Shown here: positions 16,106 to 44,629 of the stretch, piece by piece
Numbering within the stretch: the first letter of the stretch is position 1
How the letters are laid out: each line of letters begins with the position of its first letter
Assembly (NCBI GenBank): GCA_020432045.1
Contig: JAGQHB010000064.1
Coordinates: forward strand, 1 to 53,651
From: Dehalococcoidia bacterium
GTDB lineage: Bacteria > Chloroflexota > Dehalococcoidia > Tepidiformales > Tepidiformaceae
Direction: 5' to 3'
Length of the DNA stretch: 53,651 nt
Translations under genes and position numbers: made by a program
The notes under the pieces: generated by a model
Databases searched by the model: none
What the model was told of the DNA's origin: nothing
Seen by the model: the letters and a program-made list of their open reading frames with translations, nothing else

Positions 16106-16311
16106 TCGCCGATCATCGCCACAATACATGGCAATGCAATTACCTCAGGTATCGTCGGTATGCCTCCGAATCGCCGCGTCAGGTCGCTAGACCGATGCCC
16201 GCGGCCTGTTCCCACGGGCTACGATGTACCAGTCGGGTTGTTGGGCCGCGGGCATCGGCTCCCCGAGCTACGCGAGAGGAAGTAACGGCGGCTCACGCCC
16301 GGGTCAGGCAT

Positions 16312-17511
16312 ATGCAGAGTCAAAGCCCACCGCAACACACACATGGTGTGGCATCACGTGCCTCCCGCCTCGCCATGACCCTTGTCGCAATCGCCGCCGT
16401 GATGGCGCTCGTTGCCTGCTCCAGCCGGCCCGAAGCCAGGACGCCTCAAGAGCTAAAAGTGCCTCCGGCTCTTCCACCTCCAGTCGGTATCGTCCTGGCC
16501 GCGCCCTCTATTGCTGACCAGGGTTATCCAATCACCGTCACAGGATATCTCCGACGCCTCGAGCTACCCGTCGCGGCGCACGTCCTCGTTGACTTCGGCG
16601 ATGGCACGGCCAGCCAGATCACCGTTGGCGGTGGCGGCAGTTTCGCGGTGGAGCACACCTACCGCCGCCCCGGTTCGTTCACCGTCGTCGCGGTCGCCCA
16701 CGCGGACGAACTGAGCCCAAACGCCGTTGAGCACCCAATCGTGGTCAATCCTCGCCGGATTGTCTTCATCCAGGGTGTGAACAGCTCCAGCCACTGCCCC
16801 GACGGCGCCGGATTCCTCACGCGCGCCCCCGAATGGCTGGAGCCCGGCCTGGTTGCAGATCTCGGCGCCCACGGCCTCGTCGTCTCCGAAGACCAGTTCT
16901 CGTATTTCAGCTACTCCGGGCGCTACTGTGGCCTCGCAGGCTCCGCTCCTGATTACGAAGTGAGCGACACCTGCGCCAGCCTTAGCGACGTCCAGGCTGC
17001 GCACCTCATGACCCTCGTGAAGGCCATCGGCCCCGGCAAGGTCACCCTCGTTGGCTTCAGCATGGGCGGTTTGCTGGCTGCCTACACGGTCGCAGCCAAC
17101 CCCGACTGGGCACACGAACGGATCGCCTCCGTCCTCACCTTCGACAGCCCGCTCGGCGGTATCGGATTCACCCGCACCACCTTCCTCGGCGCCGATGGTG
17201 TCTTTGGTCCGGATTGTGGCCCGCGCTCAAGCGCGCTCGATGACATGGGCGAAGGAAGTGCGGTCGTGCGCACCGCCGCGCTTGCGCCGGATGTCATCCC
17301 CGTCTACACCGTCGACGCGACATCCGCTGAGCCCGGTACCTTCGGGCGCATCGAGGCTGTCCCCGGCTCCGCGGCAACGCTCCGCGGGGCGGCTGCACAT
17401 CTCGAAGTCTCCCAACGCCATGGTGCCATCTGGAACGACCCGGGCGACGCCGTCGACGCCAAAGTCCGCTTCGTCGTCTGCGCCATAGTCGTCGCCCCGG
17501 CCTGCACCTGA
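16312..17511 (+). CDS. Secreted lipoprotein with PKD-like and alpha/beta hydrolase (lipase) domains
   Basis: A 399-residue exported protein. A long basic n-region precedes a hydrophobic helix and a lipobox with Cys36 (VMALVACSS). Residues about 50-140 look like a PKD/Ig-type fold (VLVDFGDGTASQI, EHTYRRPGSFTVVAVA). From residue 145 on there is a lipase-like alpha/beta hydrolase with IVFIQGVNSSS at its first strand and the nucleophile elbow GFSMGG (Ser250). It probably acts on lipids or esters outside the cell. ATG 16312 is used; ATG 16375 would give a shorter signal peptide and is possible. Confidence 0.75.
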   Translation: MQSQSPPQHTHGVASRASRLAMTLVAIAAVMALVACSSRPEARTPQELKVPPALPPPVGIVLAAPSIADQGYPITVTGYLRRLELPVAAHVLVDFGDGTASQITVGGGGSFAVEHTYRRPGSFTVVAVAHADELSPNAVEHPIVVNPRRIVFIQGVNSSSHCPDGAGFLTRAPEWLEPGLVADLGAHGLVVSEDQFSYFSYSGRYCGLAGSAPDYEVSDTCASLSDVQAAHLMTLVKAIGPGKVTLVGFSMGGLLAAYTVAANPDWAHERIASVLTFDSPLGGIGFTRTTFLGADGVFGPDCGPRSSALDDMGEGSAVVRTAALAPDVIPVYTVDATSAEPGTFGRIEAVPGSAATLRGAAAHLEVSQRHGAIWNDPGDAVDAKVRFVVCAIVVAPACT

Positions 17512-17542: not shown

Positions 17543-17570
17543 TTGAAGCGGGTGCTTCAGCCCGTAGAAT
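17543..17570 (+). promoter_or_regulatory. Candidate promoter giving a leaderless mRNA
   Basis: TTGAAG at 17543-17548 and TAGAAT at 17565-17570 are 16 bases apart. The expected start of transcription, six to seven bases after the -10 box, coincides with the ATG at 17577, and no Shine-Dalgarno sequence is visible. The downstream selenoprotein-like gene may be translated from a leaderless message. Confidence 0.45.
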
Positions 17571-17576
17571 GCCCCC

Positions 17577-18098
17577 ATGACCGATGCACCTGTGCCACGT
17601 CTCCGCTACGTCTCAGATGACGAACTTCCCGAGGATCTCCGCAACCGCCGCGACCCTGTTACCCGTGTCTTCGGCCACCACCCCGAACTGCTGAAAGCCT
17701 GGAACGAGTGGTACCGGCCGCTCATCCGCGACAACGCCCTCCCCGCAAGGCTTAAAGAGATCGTGAGGATGCGCGTCGCCCAGCTCAACGCCTGTAGCTT
17801 CTGACAGGCCGCTCGTATTCCCCTGTCAGGGGAAGGAGACACCCTCGAAGAGGAAACCGTCGCCATGGTCAGCACATGGAGCGACGCAGGCTTTTCTCTC
17901 GCCGAGATGGCCGCCCTCCACTACACGGAGCGCATGTTCATCGACCACGACAACATCGACCAGGAACTGTTCGACGAACTTCGCGAGCACTTCACCGAGC
18001 GCCAGATCGTCGAGCTTGGCTGGGCTGTCGTCAGCTACCTCGGCTTCGGCCGTCTCATCCATACCTTCGGACTCCGCAGCGACTCCCGGGTCGACTAG
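17577..18098 (+). CDS. Candidate selenoprotein: carboxymuconolactone decarboxylase/AhpD-like protein with CxxU motif
   Basis: Two parts in the same frame, 17577-17801 and 17805-18098, are separated by one UGA at 17802-17804. Read through, they give 173 residues of the CMD/AhpD-like fold: N-terminal helices (HHPELLKAWNEWYRPL), the active-site segment VRMRVAQLNACSF-U, then FSLAEMAALHYTERM and LREHFTERQIVELGW, matching family proteins of about 180 residues. The UGA stands where relatives have the second Cys of CxxC, giving Cys73-Ser-Phe-Sec76. A hairpin suited to a bacterial SECIS follows at 17818-17834. The expected activity is peroxide or disulfide redox chemistry. A nonsense mutation is the alternative, but both halves keep full coding character. 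No selA, selB, selC or selD lies in this window. Confidence 0.8.
17818..17834 (+). promoter_or_regulatory. SECIS-like hairpin downstream of in-frame UGA
   Basis: A perfect 7-bp stem (TTCCCCT at 17818-17824 with AGGGGAA at 17828-17834) closes a GTC loop. Twenty bases lie between the UGA and the loop, and the first loop base is G. Both fit the known bacterial SECIS pattern (small hairpin, loop about 16-37 bases after UGA, G in the first two loop positions). It lies inside the coding frame, as bacterial SECIS elements do. Confidence 0.65.
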
Positions 18099-18201
18099 GT
18101 ATCCCACGCTTACCGCATCGTAGACAGCAATTCGCCGCGGTGGTTTCCTTCCACGTATCGTGCCTCCCGCTACGCCTCCCCGCCTTGCGGATGCGGAGCA
18201 C

Positions 18202-19212
18202 GTGACTCGCCGGCGCCACCGTTTCCGTGCGGCCATTGTAGCCGTGGGGTTGCTGTTGCTCGCCGCGGTCACGTTCGTTCCCCTTGCTGCAGCTCAATCA
18301 GGGCCCCGGCTCACGCCGCGCCTCCGCGTCGCGCAGCTGTCCGCCGACCAGGGCCGTATCACGACGCTTCCCGGCCTCGGCTGTGCGGGCCATGCCCTTA
18401 CCGGCATCGATGCCGTCCGTAGCCTTGCCTCCGCTGGCCGCTCGCGTAGCTACCGCGTCTATCTCCCCACCACGTCGAAGCCCGGCATCCGCTTGCCCGT
18501 CGTTATCGATTTCCATGCCCTGGCCTCCAATGGCCAGCTCCAGGAGAGCCTTACCGGCTTCAGAGCGCTTGCCGAATCCGAAGGCTTCATCCTCGTCCAT
18601 CCCGATGGAGTCGGAACACCATCCGGCTGGAATGCGTTGCTCAACACCACCTCCGGCATCGATGACGTGCAGTTCACGTCCGACCTTCTCGACGACCTCC
18701 TGCGGGACTATTGCGTTGATGCCCGGCGTATCTATGCCACCGGCTTCAGCAACGGCGCCATGCTCGCTTCCCGTATCGGCTGCCAGCTCGGCTCCCGTGT
18801 CGCCGCCATCGCCCCCGTCGCTGGGTTCTACACGCCGGACGACAACTGCGTCGGCGTCGCTCCCGTCCTCGCTATCCACGGCACCAACGACGATGTCGTG
18901 CCCTTCGCGGGCGGCCTCACCGTGGGAGTTCCCTATCCAGGCGTCGAGGAGTCCCTGAAACAGTGGGCCGGCACAGTTGCGCACTGTTCAGGCGCCGAAT
19001 CCTCCTACTACATTGGGCCGGGCCTCCGCCTCGAATCCTACGAAGGCTGTGGCCGCGAACTCAGCTCACTCCTCATCGTCGAGGGCCTTGGCCACGCACC
19101 GCCCACCGGCGCCGTCGCCGAATACATCTGGTCTTTCTTCAAACAACAACAACTGCCCTGGCCCACGAGCTACGCTGCGAACGCCCCGGTCACCCCATCC
19201 GGTTTGCCATGA
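18202..19212 (+). CDS. Secreted PHB-depolymerase/feruloyl-esterase-like alpha/beta hydrolase
   Basis: A 336-residue exported esterase. The signal peptide runs from VTRRRHRFR through a hydrophobic core to LAAAQSG near residue 33. The fold is that of the LpqC/polyhydroxybutyrate depolymerase family: RSYRVYLPTT, VVIDFHALASN (oxyanion strand), the nucleophile elbow GFSNGA with Ser183, a catalytic Asp in IHGTNDDVVPF and His in GLGHAPP. It probably cleaves polymer or plant esters outside the cell. The GTG start at 18202 is chosen for a normal-length signal peptide; GTG 18160 is also possible. Its 3' end overlaps the convergent thioesterase gene by 23 bases. Confidence 0.82.
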   Translation: MTRRRHRFRAAIVAVGLLLLAAVTFVPLAAAQSGPRLTPRLRVAQLSADQGRITTLPGLGCAGHALTGIDAVRSLASAGRSRSYRVYLPTTSKPGIRLPVVIDFHALASNGQLQESLTGFRALAESEGFILVHPDGVGTPSGWNALLNTTSGIDDVQFTSDLLDDLLRDYCVDARRIYATGFSNGAMLASRIGCQLGSRVAAIAPVAGFYTPDDNCVGVAPVLAIHGTNDDVVPFAGGLTVGVPYPGVEESLKQWAGTVAHCSGAESSYYIGPGLRLESYEGCGRELSSLLIVEGLGHAPPTGAVAEYIWSFFKQQQLPWPTSYAANAPVTPSGLP

Positions 19213-20875: not shown

Positions 20876-20958
20876 AGCCTGCCCAGCTTCCTCTCGTAAC
20901 CGCGGCCGCCCATGGCCGCTGGCTGTCCGGATCACGCCCGGCAGCCCGAAACACGCAT

Positions 20959-21014
20959 CTCCCCCTCGCCCTCGCCAGAGGGAGAGGGGCCAGGGGTGAG
21001 GGTCGCCACCGGCC
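20959..21014 (+). repeat. Dispersed intergenic hairpin repeat, copy 1
   Basis: A 56-base unit that contains CTCCCCCTCGCCCTC followed by GAGGGAGAGGGG, then GGGGTGAGGGTCGCCACC. The opposing pyrimidine and purine arms can form a strong hairpin. It matches the copy at 21103 with a single visible difference. Confidence 0.8.
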
Positions 21015-21102
21015 TAACACCCCGCCCGCCAGTCCCCACCACCGCCGCGAAGGGCAGGCTCCTGAACCGCGCGCGGGCACTACTCCGCACCGGAACGCCG
21101 CT

Positions 21103-21158
21103 CTCCCCCTCGCCCTCACCAGAGGGAGAGGGGCCAGGGGTGAGGGTCGCCACCGGCC
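21103..21158 (+). repeat. Dispersed intergenic hairpin repeat, copy 2
   Basis: The same 56-base unit as at 20959. Looser relatives with a GGGAGAGGG arm and a following TGAGGG-CGCCA tail occur at 27628, 50672, 50833 and 51640. Confidence 0.8.
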
Positions 21159-21221
21159 GAGCCACCCATGGATATCGTCGCCACCCCCAATGTTCAGTGC
21201 TACGATCGTGATGTAACAACC

Positions 21222-42800: not shown

Positions 42801-43805
42801 CGCTCAACTTCAACGCCGGGTCCCGCAACATTGCCCGGAGGCGGGCAGGGTTCGCTCGGCCCCGTCGTAAGCAGCGATGGACAGTATTTCGCAACGGCAC
42901 ATTCAGACTGCCCGGCCGCCTCCCAGCTCGGCTGTGGCGCGCGCGTCATCGTCTGGGACGCCCGGACAGGTGCTCCGGTGGGCGAAGCCGTGGCCGTACC
43001 CAATCCTGCCCCCTCCCTACGTGGGCCGGTACTGATGGCCTTCCACCCCGATCTCCCGGTCCTCGCGATTGCTGGCCCCAACAATACGGTACGGGTGGTG
43101 ACCATTGATCGCGGGGCCCTTGACGTCGGACCTTCGTTCACAGTCCCGAACGGCGTCTCACCATTCGTCACGTCGATGGCGTTCGTCCCGTCGGCCCTCG
43201 CTCCTGTGCCTACGCTTATCACGTTCGCCGGTGCCTCAATATCCGCCTGGGATGTCGCTTCGGACATTCCCACCGGCCCCGCGCTCCTCTGGGAGTACGA
43301 CTGGCGTGGAAAGTCCGATCAGATCAGGGCATTCGCCATCAGCCGGGACGGATTCATTGCCCTCGCGGTAGGATCCGGCGCGCTCGAGTACTATCGGCTC
43401 GACGATTTCGCGGTTGAATGGGCTGTTGGCGACCCCGCCTGGTCGATTCCCGGCGTGTTCCCGCTTGGCAAACCGGTCTCGTTTGCCTTCTCGTCCGATG
43501 AGCGTTTGCTCAGCCTCCGCACTGCAGATGGGTCTGTGGCCGTCTGGGATATCGTGAGCCGCCAGCGCATCGGTTCGAGCTTCGCGCCCCAGAGGTCCAC
43601 GGATGCATGGCTTCTCGGGGATAGCGCCCTCCTCGTCTCCAGCGATTCGTCCGCAATCCTCTGGAAACTCGACACGCAGCTGTGGGCCACCACCGCCTGT
43701 CTCGCGGCGGGTCGCAACCTCACCCACGCCGAATGGACAAAGTACTTTCCTGGCCGCCCCTACGAAGTGACCTGCGACCATTGGCCAGCGGATCCCCACA
43801 CCTGA
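39801..43805 (+). CDS. LuxR HTH - nSTAND ATPase - transmembrane - beta-propeller regulator
   Basis: A 1334-residue protein. Residues about 20-82 are a LuxR/GerE helix-turn-helix (LTRRELEVLAHIAAGRTNRQ, LPTAERHVHNILAKL). Residues about 105-510 are a novel STAND-type NTPase: Walker A VVGASGSGKSS near 143, Walker B VVLVLDQLEELF near 231-242, and helical regulatory parts. A basic coiled segment precedes a single hydrophobic helix at about 549-570, followed by a charged coiled coil (ARDRAQAAAVEAEAQKAV) and about 700 residues of WD40-like propeller repeats (SPDGKYLATVTTGGLVELHD and similar). With the HTH inside, the propeller would lie outside the membrane. The HTH is at the N-terminus, unlike MalT-type proteins. 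It is probably a sensor that controls the adjacent exported-protein genes. Confidence 0.87.
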   Translation: MTLERTSHDSDRTGGSGDLIHLTRRELEVLAHIAAGRTNRQIATALTISLPTAERHVHNILAKLNCSNRTEAAVVARKLIEGQGSGLAALAAVGGAVTDPSNAVEPYPGLRAFGADDGLLFFGREEAVARALGRLESHGMVTVVGASGSGKSSLVRAGLVHALRSGALPGSSEWTFLAMTPGSHPIAELAAQLSTVTGTSPVTLLHDLESDVRSLDIAVRQLAAGSDDRRVVLVLDQLEELFTMCHERQHRDRFVELLLYAATMLASRFILLVAVRADFYGECAALGGFADLLESTHMLLGPPSQDDLRAAIEMPAEVIGVSLEPGLTDRILADIGDAPGALPLLSHALRETWLRREGNTMTRAGYRAAGGTRRAIAQTADRVFQSLTPTEQDACRDLFVRLTELRDGIEDTRRRVRLPELLSADDAGSPNRELIRRLGDARLLTIEADSVEVVHEALIREWPRLRQWLDDDRDGHRIVRHLTESAQSWDRMARDSGELYRGLRLATASDWVDRHSTSLNPLEREFLTESLDAQQREQREAVTRLRRLRVLVAGLAILILVAVAGASFAVLQRDRAGSARDRAQAAAVEAEAQKAVAEAAVTEATLARLETEIPLLMKSDRSLAFVLAAEAFKLHPSIRTGALLNLVHGDDPRYLGRIWPVEPVLANYGESPDGKYLATVTTGGLVELHDLDTRSVVATARGAPGDGSALMEWADGGSLLVTAALDSATETWELIVLQVPSLVEVERLTIPSVQSTQPPSLLPGGLSLAVGINGVQHVFGLRDGSDTVLSGVPWSGSAQFDPLGRFVASQPSDAPTEVRVYDAHTYELLRTLPRTGAPGIGPAYFTAGGNLASVSSGPAGGHVDLWDPATGELLGSAPSTPVPGFAWFSTSTKLAVFPLPDGHLSLHSVPGLAPTGEPFSMLSTAYSAPYIGADDERLYSWNVSAALEYWDLTGEGLVSSYTEAPGPGEAAPAPDGTWFVKQSPDGSWSRWSLPGLALIDRSTSTPGPATLPGGGQGSLGPVVSSDGQYFATAHSDCPAASQLGCGARVIVWDARTGAPVGEAVAVPNPAPSLRGPVLMAFHPDLPVLAIAGPNNTVRVVTIDRGALDVGPSFTVPNGVSPFVTSMAFVPSALAPVPTLITFAGASISAWDVASDIPTGPALLWEYDWRGKSDQIRAFAISRDGFIALAVGSGALEYYRLDDFAVEWAVGDPAWSIPGVFPLGKPVSFAFSSDERLLSLRTADGSVAVWDIVSRQRIGSSFAPQRSTDAWLLGDSALLVSSDSSAILWKLDTQLWATTACLAAGRNLTHAEWTKYFPGRPYEVTCDHWPADPHT

Positions 43806-43876
43806 GCCCCCTCGCCCTCCCCGCTCCTCCCCGGTAGGCTACCGCTCCAGGCCCAACCCACCCGCAGGAGCACCCC

Positions 43877-44629
43877 GTGGCACTCTATGTCCGTTTTCAG
43901 CGCCCCGATGGATCAGCCGCCGCCGGCATCCTCGAAGGCGACAGCATCGCCGTTGTCCAGGAACCCTACTGGGACGAGACAGTCCCCACCGGCGAGACCG
44001 TCATGCTCGAAGGCGTGCGCCTGCTCCCGCCCGCTGAGCCACGCTCCATCGTCTGCGTCGGTCTCAACTACGCCAGCCATCTCCAGGGTCGTCCTCTGCC
44101 CGATCCCCCGACCCTCTTCTTCAAGCCCCTCGCCTCCATCTCCGGCCCCGGCGACGACATTGTCCTGCCTGCCGGCGCCGGCCGCGTCGACCCAGAGGGC
44201 GAAGTCGTCATCGTCATCGGCAAGCACGTGAAAGGCGCCACGCGCGAAGAGGCAATCGACGCCATCTTCGGCTACACCGCCGGTAACGATGTCTCCGCCC
44301 GCGAGTGGCAGAGGGCCGACGGCCAATGGTGGCGCGCCAAGGGCTCCGACACCTTCGGCATCTTCGGCCCCGCCATCGTTACGGGACTCCAATACGACCG
44401 CATTGACCTGCGGACCCGCGTCAACGGCGCCGAAGTGCAGCACGCCCGCACCGATGAGCTCATCCGTGACATCCCCGAGATCGTCCGCTACGTCAGCGCC
44501 GTCATCAGCCTCGTCCCCGGCGACATCATCTATACCGGCACCCCTGGCGAACCGCAGGCGCTGAGCTCCGGCGACATCGTCGAAGTCGAGATCTCTGGTT
44601 GCCCCGTGCTTTCCAATCGCGTCGCCTGA
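43877..44629 (+). CDS. Fumarylacetoacetate hydrolase family protein
   Basis: A 250-residue member of the FAH family, which cleaves or decarboxylates beta-diketo acids in aromatic-acid degradation. The segments VCVGLNYASHL, PDPPTLFFKPLASI, DPEGEVVIVIGKH (metal-ligand acids), GYTAGNDVSAREWQ and GDIIYTGTPGE are in normal order. GTG 43877 has CAGGAG six to seven bases upstream. It precedes the CoA-transferase gene and may belong to the same catabolic set. Confidence 0.93.
   Translation: MALYVRFQRPDGSAAAGILEGDSIAVVQEPYWDETVPTGETVMLEGVRLLPPAEPRSIVCVGLNYASHLQGRPLPDPPTLFFKPLASISGPGDDIVLPAGAGRVDPEGEVVIVIGKHVKGATREEAIDAIFGYTAGNDVSAREWQRADGQWWRAKGSDTFGIFGPAIVTGLQYDRIDLRTRVNGAEVQHARTDELIRDIPEIVRYVSAVISLVPGDIIYTGTPGEPQALSSGDIVEVEISGCPVLSNRVA

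What the first reader, a model, noticed from the sequence alone, without database searches (positions are those of the whole stretch)
17577..18098. CMD/AhpD-like gene with UGA at the second Cys of CxxC: likely selenoprotein
One in-frame UGA at 17802-17804 splits two halves that together make a complete CMD/AhpD-like protein. The UGA replaces the second cysteine of the active-site CxxC, giving Cys-Ser-Phe-Sec. A stem of seven base pairs with a GTC loop follows at 17818-17834, with 20 bases between UGA and loop and G as first loop base, as in bacterial SECIS elements. Codon use is gene-like on both sides. CxxU redox proteins, including AhpD-like ones, are known; what would be new is this family member in this lineage and its leaderless-type promoter.
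Basis: partly seen in the sequence, partly recalled or inferred. Interest (0 to 1): 0.9.

Follow-up and report, generated by a model that had tools for sequence, protein, structure and literature searches.

The report
Selenocysteine-containing AhpD/CMD-like redox protein gene
A bacterium of the Chloroflexota reads through a UGA 'stop' in this gene to place selenocysteine in a small redox enzyme of the AhpD/CMD type; it is a solid new member of a kind of selenoprotein already known since 2005.

Summary
The finding holds. Window 17577-18098 is one 173-residue CMD/AhpD-like gene with an in-frame UGA (17802-17804) at the second cysteine of CxxC, followed after 20 nt by a 7-bp hairpin with a GUC loop. 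The host genome (Tepidiformaceae, Chloroflexota) has SelA, SelB, SelD (itself UGA-containing) and tRNA-Sec. All 18 copies detected (window included; 16 in the family, two elsewhere in the class; 57-71% identical to the window's) carry UGA at this codon, while more distant homologues have Cys there. Both halves are under purifying selection; synonymous codons are frozen exactly over the hairpin; one stem pair changes U-A to C-G in two outgroup orthologues. A -10 box 6-8 nt before the start is conserved in 15 of 16 copies checked: the leaderless reading is well supported. CxxU AhpD-like and CMD-like selenoproteins are established families, so this is a new member or subfamily, not a new kind. 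Distinctive: the relay histidine of AhpD is an invariant arginine (CxxUxxxR), so 'AhpD proper' is not met; and no Cys orthologue was found. Substrate unknown; most likely a thiol/selenol redox enzyme (peroxide reductase or disulfide adaptor).

The parts
17543..17570 (+). sigma-70-like promoter: TTGAAG (17543-17548), 16-nt spacer, TAGAAT (17565-17570), placed so that transcription would start at or next to the A of ATG
   Evidence: consensus scan 1 found vs 0.1 expected; a TANNNT box 6-8 nt before the start is present in 15 of 16 copies against 0.7% background; the -35 box is not conserved
17577..18098 (+). coding sequence of the 173-residue CMD/AhpD-like selenoprotein, UGA read through, ending at UAG 18096-18098
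   Evidence: PF02627 E 7.5e-10, stretch 36-118 spans the UGA; orthologues
17793..17804 (+). active-site motif Cys73-Ser-Phe-Sec76
   Evidence: invariant C73 and UGA in all orthologues
17802..17804 (+). UGA codon, predicted selenocysteine 76
   Evidence: UGA at this codon in 18 of 18 copies; Cys in distant homologues
17814..17816 (+). codon for Arg80, at the place of the relay histidine of AhpD (CxxUxxxR)
   Evidence: invariant column R80; alignment to PA0269 places it at His55
17818..17834 (+). bacterial SECIS-like hairpin, 7 bp, loop GUC 17825-17827
   Evidence: synonymous codon identity 0.92 over codons 81-86 against 0.49 elsewhere

Best explanation
The gene encodes a selenoprotein of the CMD/AhpD-like superfamily. 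Shown: the UGA, the conserved hairpin, the Sec machinery, the conserved reading frame on both sides, the (predicted) fold, and the conserved leaderless-type -10 box. Inferred: SelB bound to the hairpin delivers Sec-tRNA(Sec) at UGA 17802-17804, giving a full-length 173-residue protein with a Cys73-x-x-Sec76 couple at the start of the active-site helix. Sec76 would be the attacking selenolate, oxidised by a hydroperoxide or another electrophile, and Cys73 would resolve it as a selenenylsulfide, re-reduced by a thioredoxin-like or AhpC-like partner. Glu61 keeps the place of the AhpD relay glutamate, but Arg80 replaces the relay histidine and Phe75 the Tyr/His, so the selenol (low pKa, general knowledge) would need less help from a proton relay, with Arg80 perhaps stabilising the selenolate. 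The true substrate is unknown. The gene stands alone, with its own leaderless-type promoter. The confidence given is for selenoprotein of the CMD/AhpD-like superfamily; for peroxide or disulfide chemistry it is about 0.6.
For: Sec machinery in the same genome: SelA E 9e-129, SelB above cut-off, SelD above cut-off with its own UGA, tRNA-SeC with anticodon tca. A single-contig relative, G011, has both this gene and SelA on one 2.4-Mb contig. 18 copies in 18 genomes, all with exactly this UGA. SelA present in 15 of 16 family genomes with the gene against 11 of 22 without it (one-sided Fisher p 0.004; the exception G018 is an 81% complete draft), and in both genomes outside the family. pN below pS on both sides of the UGA in all pairs tested. 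Synonymous conservation peaks on codons 81-86, permutation p 5e-5. 100% of hairpin cells pair, with one compensatory U-A to C-G change in the two outgroup orthologues and two G-U wobbles. Fold: D. radiodurans AhpD 6k40 Z 17.5 over 164 residues, PA0269 Z 15.9.
Against: No protein or selenium-labelling evidence. Covariation is thin because the hairpin is almost invariant (one pair with a two-sided change). Folding energy alone is unremarkable for the 41-nt stretch. No Rfam model matches. The catalytic part is inference: the His of the AhpD relay is missing, and no operon partner is conserved.
Confidence: 0.95

Rival explanations
1. Pseudogene or sequencing error: the UGA is a recent nonsense mutation or a miscall of a Cys codon (TGC/TGT).
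For: This assembly has 115 contigs, and a TGA differs from a Cys codon by one base.
Against: The same UGA occurs in 18 separate assemblies from ten genera of three families of the class, with purifying selection on both sides and a frozen downstream hairpin.
Confidence: 0.01
2. UGA is read as another residue (Trp, Cys or Gly recoding) or by unspecific read-through, not as Sec.
For: Some bacteria reassign UGA (general knowledge).
Against: Homologues have Cys here, not Trp or Gly; complete selA/B/C/D set present; UGA at SelD's own Sec place in the same genome; the hairpin is conserved.
Confidence: 0.02
3. Two separate genes: a 75-residue protein ending at UGA and a second ORF from ATG 17865.
For: A 77-residue ORF starts at 17865 in the same frame.
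Against: The region between UGA and 17865 is conserved at the protein level (QAARxPLSGEG), the CMD domain match spans the UGA, and residue 76 is the catalytic position of the family.
Confidence: 0.02
4. Selenoprotein, but its enzymatic role is not peroxide reduction: for example reductive chemistry on an organic electrophile, as with the CMD-fold debrominase Bmp8, or a disulfide isomerase or adaptor role.
For: Arg80 replaces the relay His; the predicted fold also matches Bmp8 6ohi/6ohj at Z 14.6-14.7; no conserved AhpC neighbour within 1.5 kb.
Against: Bmp8 is no closer than the peroxidase-related proteins (Z 17.5); no functional data either way.
Confidence: 0.35

Closest known systems
CMD domain-containing selenoprotein (PF02627, CxxU) of the Sargasso Sea set, and 'AhpD-like 2' (pfam02627, CxxU) of the GOS set (PMC1088965, PMC2398784; CMD-like protein in PMC13188914)
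   Same: Pfam family PF02627, Sec at the second position of CxxC, SECIS directly downstream
   Different: their sequences were not compared here; this group comes from the Tepidiformaceae and is not covered by a curated NCBIfam model above cut-off
NF053654 'GroundWater_YciW', YciW-related (seleno)protein (NCBIfam)
   Same: best NCBIfam match, E 1.3e-14 over residues 52-148
   Different: 54 bits against a cut-off of 310, so not a member
AhpD-like proteins PA0269 (2ijc/2o4d) and peroxidase-related AhpD of Deinococcus (6k40, 2oyo)
   Same: fold, Glu-Cys-xx-Cys helix hairpin
   Different: Sec for the second Cys; Arg80 where the relay His stands; 17-28% identity
M. tuberculosis AhpD (1gu9, 1knc)
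   Same: active-site helix pair (Z 9.0); Glu118/Cys130/Cys133 places kept as Glu61/Cys73/Sec76
   Different: different chain topology (PMC3141380); His137 and His132 not kept
Cys homologues: G022 of the same family (39% identical, CDVCQSVR), Massilia plasmid (CKACQLAR), Caulobacter plasmid (CPVCQIAR)
   Same: same CxxCxxxR motif, Cys at the Sec place
   Different: Cys instead of Sec; distant (35-39% identity)

Membership tests
Bacterial selenoprotein | in-frame UGA at a position held by Cys in homologues | tested here: met
   18 copies with UGA, distant homologues with Cys
Bacterial selenoprotein | selA, selB, selC, selD in the genome | tested here: met
Bacterial selenoprotein | SECIS hairpin just downstream of UGA with G in the first two loop bases | tested here: met
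   hairpin 17818-17834, loop GUC, 20 nt from UGA, conserved; bSECISearch itself not available
Bacterial selenoprotein | selenium in the protein | not testable with these tools
   needs mass spectrometry or 75Se labelling
CMD superfamily (PF02627) | match above Pfam gathering score across the active site | tested here: met
   39.1 bits against 23, residues 36-118
AhpD-like peroxidase-related proteins | CxxC (here CxxU) at the start of the active-site helix, with a Glu 12 residues before the first Cys | tested here: met
   E61, C73, U76 invariant; aligned to PA0269
AhpD-like peroxidase-related proteins | invariant relay His four residues after the second Cys (His55 of PA0269, His137 of Mtb AhpD; PMC3141380) | tested here: not met
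   Arg80 in all orthologues of the alignment
AhpD-like peroxidase-related proteins | peroxidase activity | not testable with these tools
   no assay
NF053654 YciW-related (seleno)protein | score above curated cut-off 310 | tested here: not met
   54.4 bits
TIGR01926 peroxidase-related enzyme | score above curated cut-off 81.8 | tested here: not met
   32.9 bits

The most novel reading that the evidence does not exclude
An unnamed subfamily of CMD selenoenzymes, CxxUxxxR, that uses Sec with no Cys orthologue known and has traded the AhpD proton-relay histidine for arginine, perhaps with a chemistry other than peroxide reduction, in a family whose genomes hold up to five UGA-containing CMD paralogues.
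Probability: 0.35. Interest if true: 0.5.

Novelty: new member of a known kind. Interest (0 to 1): 0.33.

Why it matters
It corrects a gene that ordinary annotation would cut into two fragments in at least 18 genomes, adds an apparently always-Sec subfamily to the CMD/AhpD selenoproteins, and points to the Tepidiformaceae as a Sec-using lineage in which one genus (g13) lacks both SelA and this gene. It offers a natural case to ask what Sec does when the AhpD relay histidine is absent. It does not open a new principle.

Tried and rejected
Sequencing error and pseudogene: rejected by 18 copies in separate genomes. Two genes: rejected by the domain match across the UGA and conservation between the halves. 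Rfam search for SECIS models: no match even at E 10, which says little, as bacterial SECIS elements are diverse. Folding energy alone: weak. Conserved operon: none within 1.5 kb in the orthologues; flanking ORFs resembled the window only in overlapping frames of the gene itself, apart from two g7 genomes whose neighbours resemble window genes far away and two weak matches in wider flanks. Search of more of the phylum (400 genomes drawn evenly): no further orthologue at E 1e-25. L034 has a different hairpin (CCCCUGUC-GUC-GACAGGGG, 23 nt from UGA), so it was left out of the pair count.

Full report
What is there. The window is contig C13 of a 3.48-Mb genome. At 17577-18098 a single reading frame with one internal UGA gives a 173-residue protein, MTDAPVPRL...LNACSFUQAARIPLSGEG...GLRSDSRVD. 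It matches Pfam CMD (PF02627) over residues 36-118, across the UGA, E 7.5e-10. Of 1277 UGA triplets on both strands of the window, 8 have a hairpin of seven or more perfect pairs at a SECIS-like distance with G among the first two loop bases, so the hairpin alone is suggestive, not proof.

Sec machinery. The same genome has SelA, SelB, SelD and tRNA-SeC with anticodon tca. SelD itself has an in-frame UGA at its N-terminal active-site place (TSCGGU), with a hairpin behind it. The parts lie on different contigs (C69, C68, C2, C54) of a draft with 3.7% contamination, but in the relative G011 this gene and SelA lie on one 2.4-Mb contig.

Orthologues. A search of 60 relatives found 14 orthologues at 62-71% identity, each with UGA at the same place (the extra TAA reported for G009 is the gene's own terminal stop, since the slightly shorter profile hit has the UGA only). 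A profile search of 393 genomes of the class raised this to 18 genomes, window included: 16 in the family and two in other families; L053 is the same sequence as that of G275. Every one has UGA; none has Cys. A wider draw of 400 genomes of the phylum found no more. The nearest homologue with Cys (G022, 39% identical) reads CDVCQSVR, and plasmid-borne relatives in Massilia and Caulobacter read CKACQLAR and CPVCQIAR, so the UGA stands at a cysteine. Non-synonymous change is below synonymous change on both sides of the UGA (window vs G011: pN/pS 0.21/0.64 upstream, 0.21/0.47 downstream). In the family, 15 of 16 genomes with the gene have SelA, against 11 of 22 without it (p 0.004). All six genomes of genus g13 lack both.

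Hairpin. Among non-redundant orthologues, pairs of identical residues use the same codon in 92% of cases in codons 81-86, which encode the hairpin, and 49% elsewhere; this is the highest six-codon window of the gene (p 5e-5 at the fixed place; no permutation in 1000 reached it anywhere). All 84 hairpin cells in 12 distinct sequences form standard pairs. One pair is U-A in ten and C-G in two sequences, and two pairs show a G-U form. In G009 (L034) the sequence differs and offers another hairpin, again with a GUC loop, 23 nt from UGA. The conserved protein stretch PLSGEG is thus probably conserved partly because of the RNA.

Start. TAGAAT ends with six bases between it and the ATG, and a TTGAAG lies 16 bases further up. 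A TANNNT box 6-8 nt before the start codon is present in 15 of 16 copies inspected, in two of which the start is GTG; over all ATG/GTG of the window the rate is 0.7%. The sequences around it are otherwise not alike. The outgroup orthologue L053 lacks the box. This fits a leaderless transcript, untested by experiment. No neighbouring gene is conserved, so the gene appears to be a unit of its own. Its window neighbours are an alpha/beta hydrolase-like ORF upstream (16150-17508) and another esterase-like ORF downstream (18160-19212).

Protein and mechanism. AlphaFold2 with 14 orthologues gives pLDDT 82 (Cys stands in for Sec). Best solved matches are D. radiodurans AhpD 6k40 (Z 17.5, rmsd 2.7, 164 residues), D. 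geothermalis 2oyo, PA0269 and Bmp8; M. tuberculosis AhpD scores Z 9.0. In AhpD-like proteins the relay consists of Glu, Cys, Tyr or His, Cys, His; the two Cys and the last His are described as invariant (PMC3141380). Here Glu61, Cys73 and Sec76 keep these places, Phe75 stands for Tyr/His, and Arg80, invariant, for the His. I therefore call it CMD/AhpD-like by fold and active-site position, but not AhpD by its relay. The most likely chemistry is attack by Sec76 and resolution by Cys73, on a hydroperoxide or disulfide. This step is inferred; the substrate is open.

Known or new. AhpD-like and CMD-domain selenoproteins with CxxU were published from the Sargasso Sea in 2005 (PMC1088965), extended in GOS (PMC2398784), and are listed in a 2026 review (PMC13188914). 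Chloroflexi selenoproteins were counted in 2006 (PMC1794560). Of the four papers in the library that name the Tepidiformaceae, the one I searched does not mention selenium (PMC10284905); the others were not read. No NCBIfam model claims the protein above cut-off. Hence: a new member, perhaps a new subfamily, of a known kind. Interest is moderate.

Noticed in passing
L077 (G000:C92:27500-30800), match at G000:C92:28932-29285, minus strand: A second CMD/AhpD-like gene with in-frame UGA in the same genome, motif CPFUMDTNT, with a hairpin (ACACUGC-CGGGA-GCAGUGU) behind the UGA; a distinct paralogue (29% identical).
   Followed up: partly
G035, G020, G025, G031, G033 (table): Genomes of genus g12 carry up to five CMD/AhpD-like genes with one in-frame UGA each, some next to a UGA-free paralogue (e.g. 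G035:C1:42993-43406 and 43547-43951): an expanded set of candidate CMD selenoproteins.
   Followed up: no
genus g13 (G012, G021, G026, G029, G032, G034): All six genomes lack SelA and this gene, and several have UGA-free CMD paralogues with CGFCRQVR: looks like loss (or absence) of the Sec trait in one genus of the family.
   Followed up: partly
L011:1501-2433 (G000:C2): selD of this genome contains an in-frame UGA (TSCGGU), so SelD is itself a likely selenoprotein.
   Followed up: yes
L034 (G009): The orthologue has a rearranged hairpin, CCCCUGUC-GUC-GACAGGGG, three bases further from UGA, keeping the GUC loop: possible natural SECIS variant.
   Followed up: partly
window, one UGA of unrecorded position: One UGA in the window is followed by a perfect 16-bp stem at SECIS-like distance; probably an inverted repeat, not looked at.
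   Followed up: no
window 20930-21215: Two near-identical stretches that read LALxRGRGARGEGRHRP in one frame and LSPSPSPEGEGPGVRVATG in another: a GC-rich intergenic repeat.
   Followed up: no
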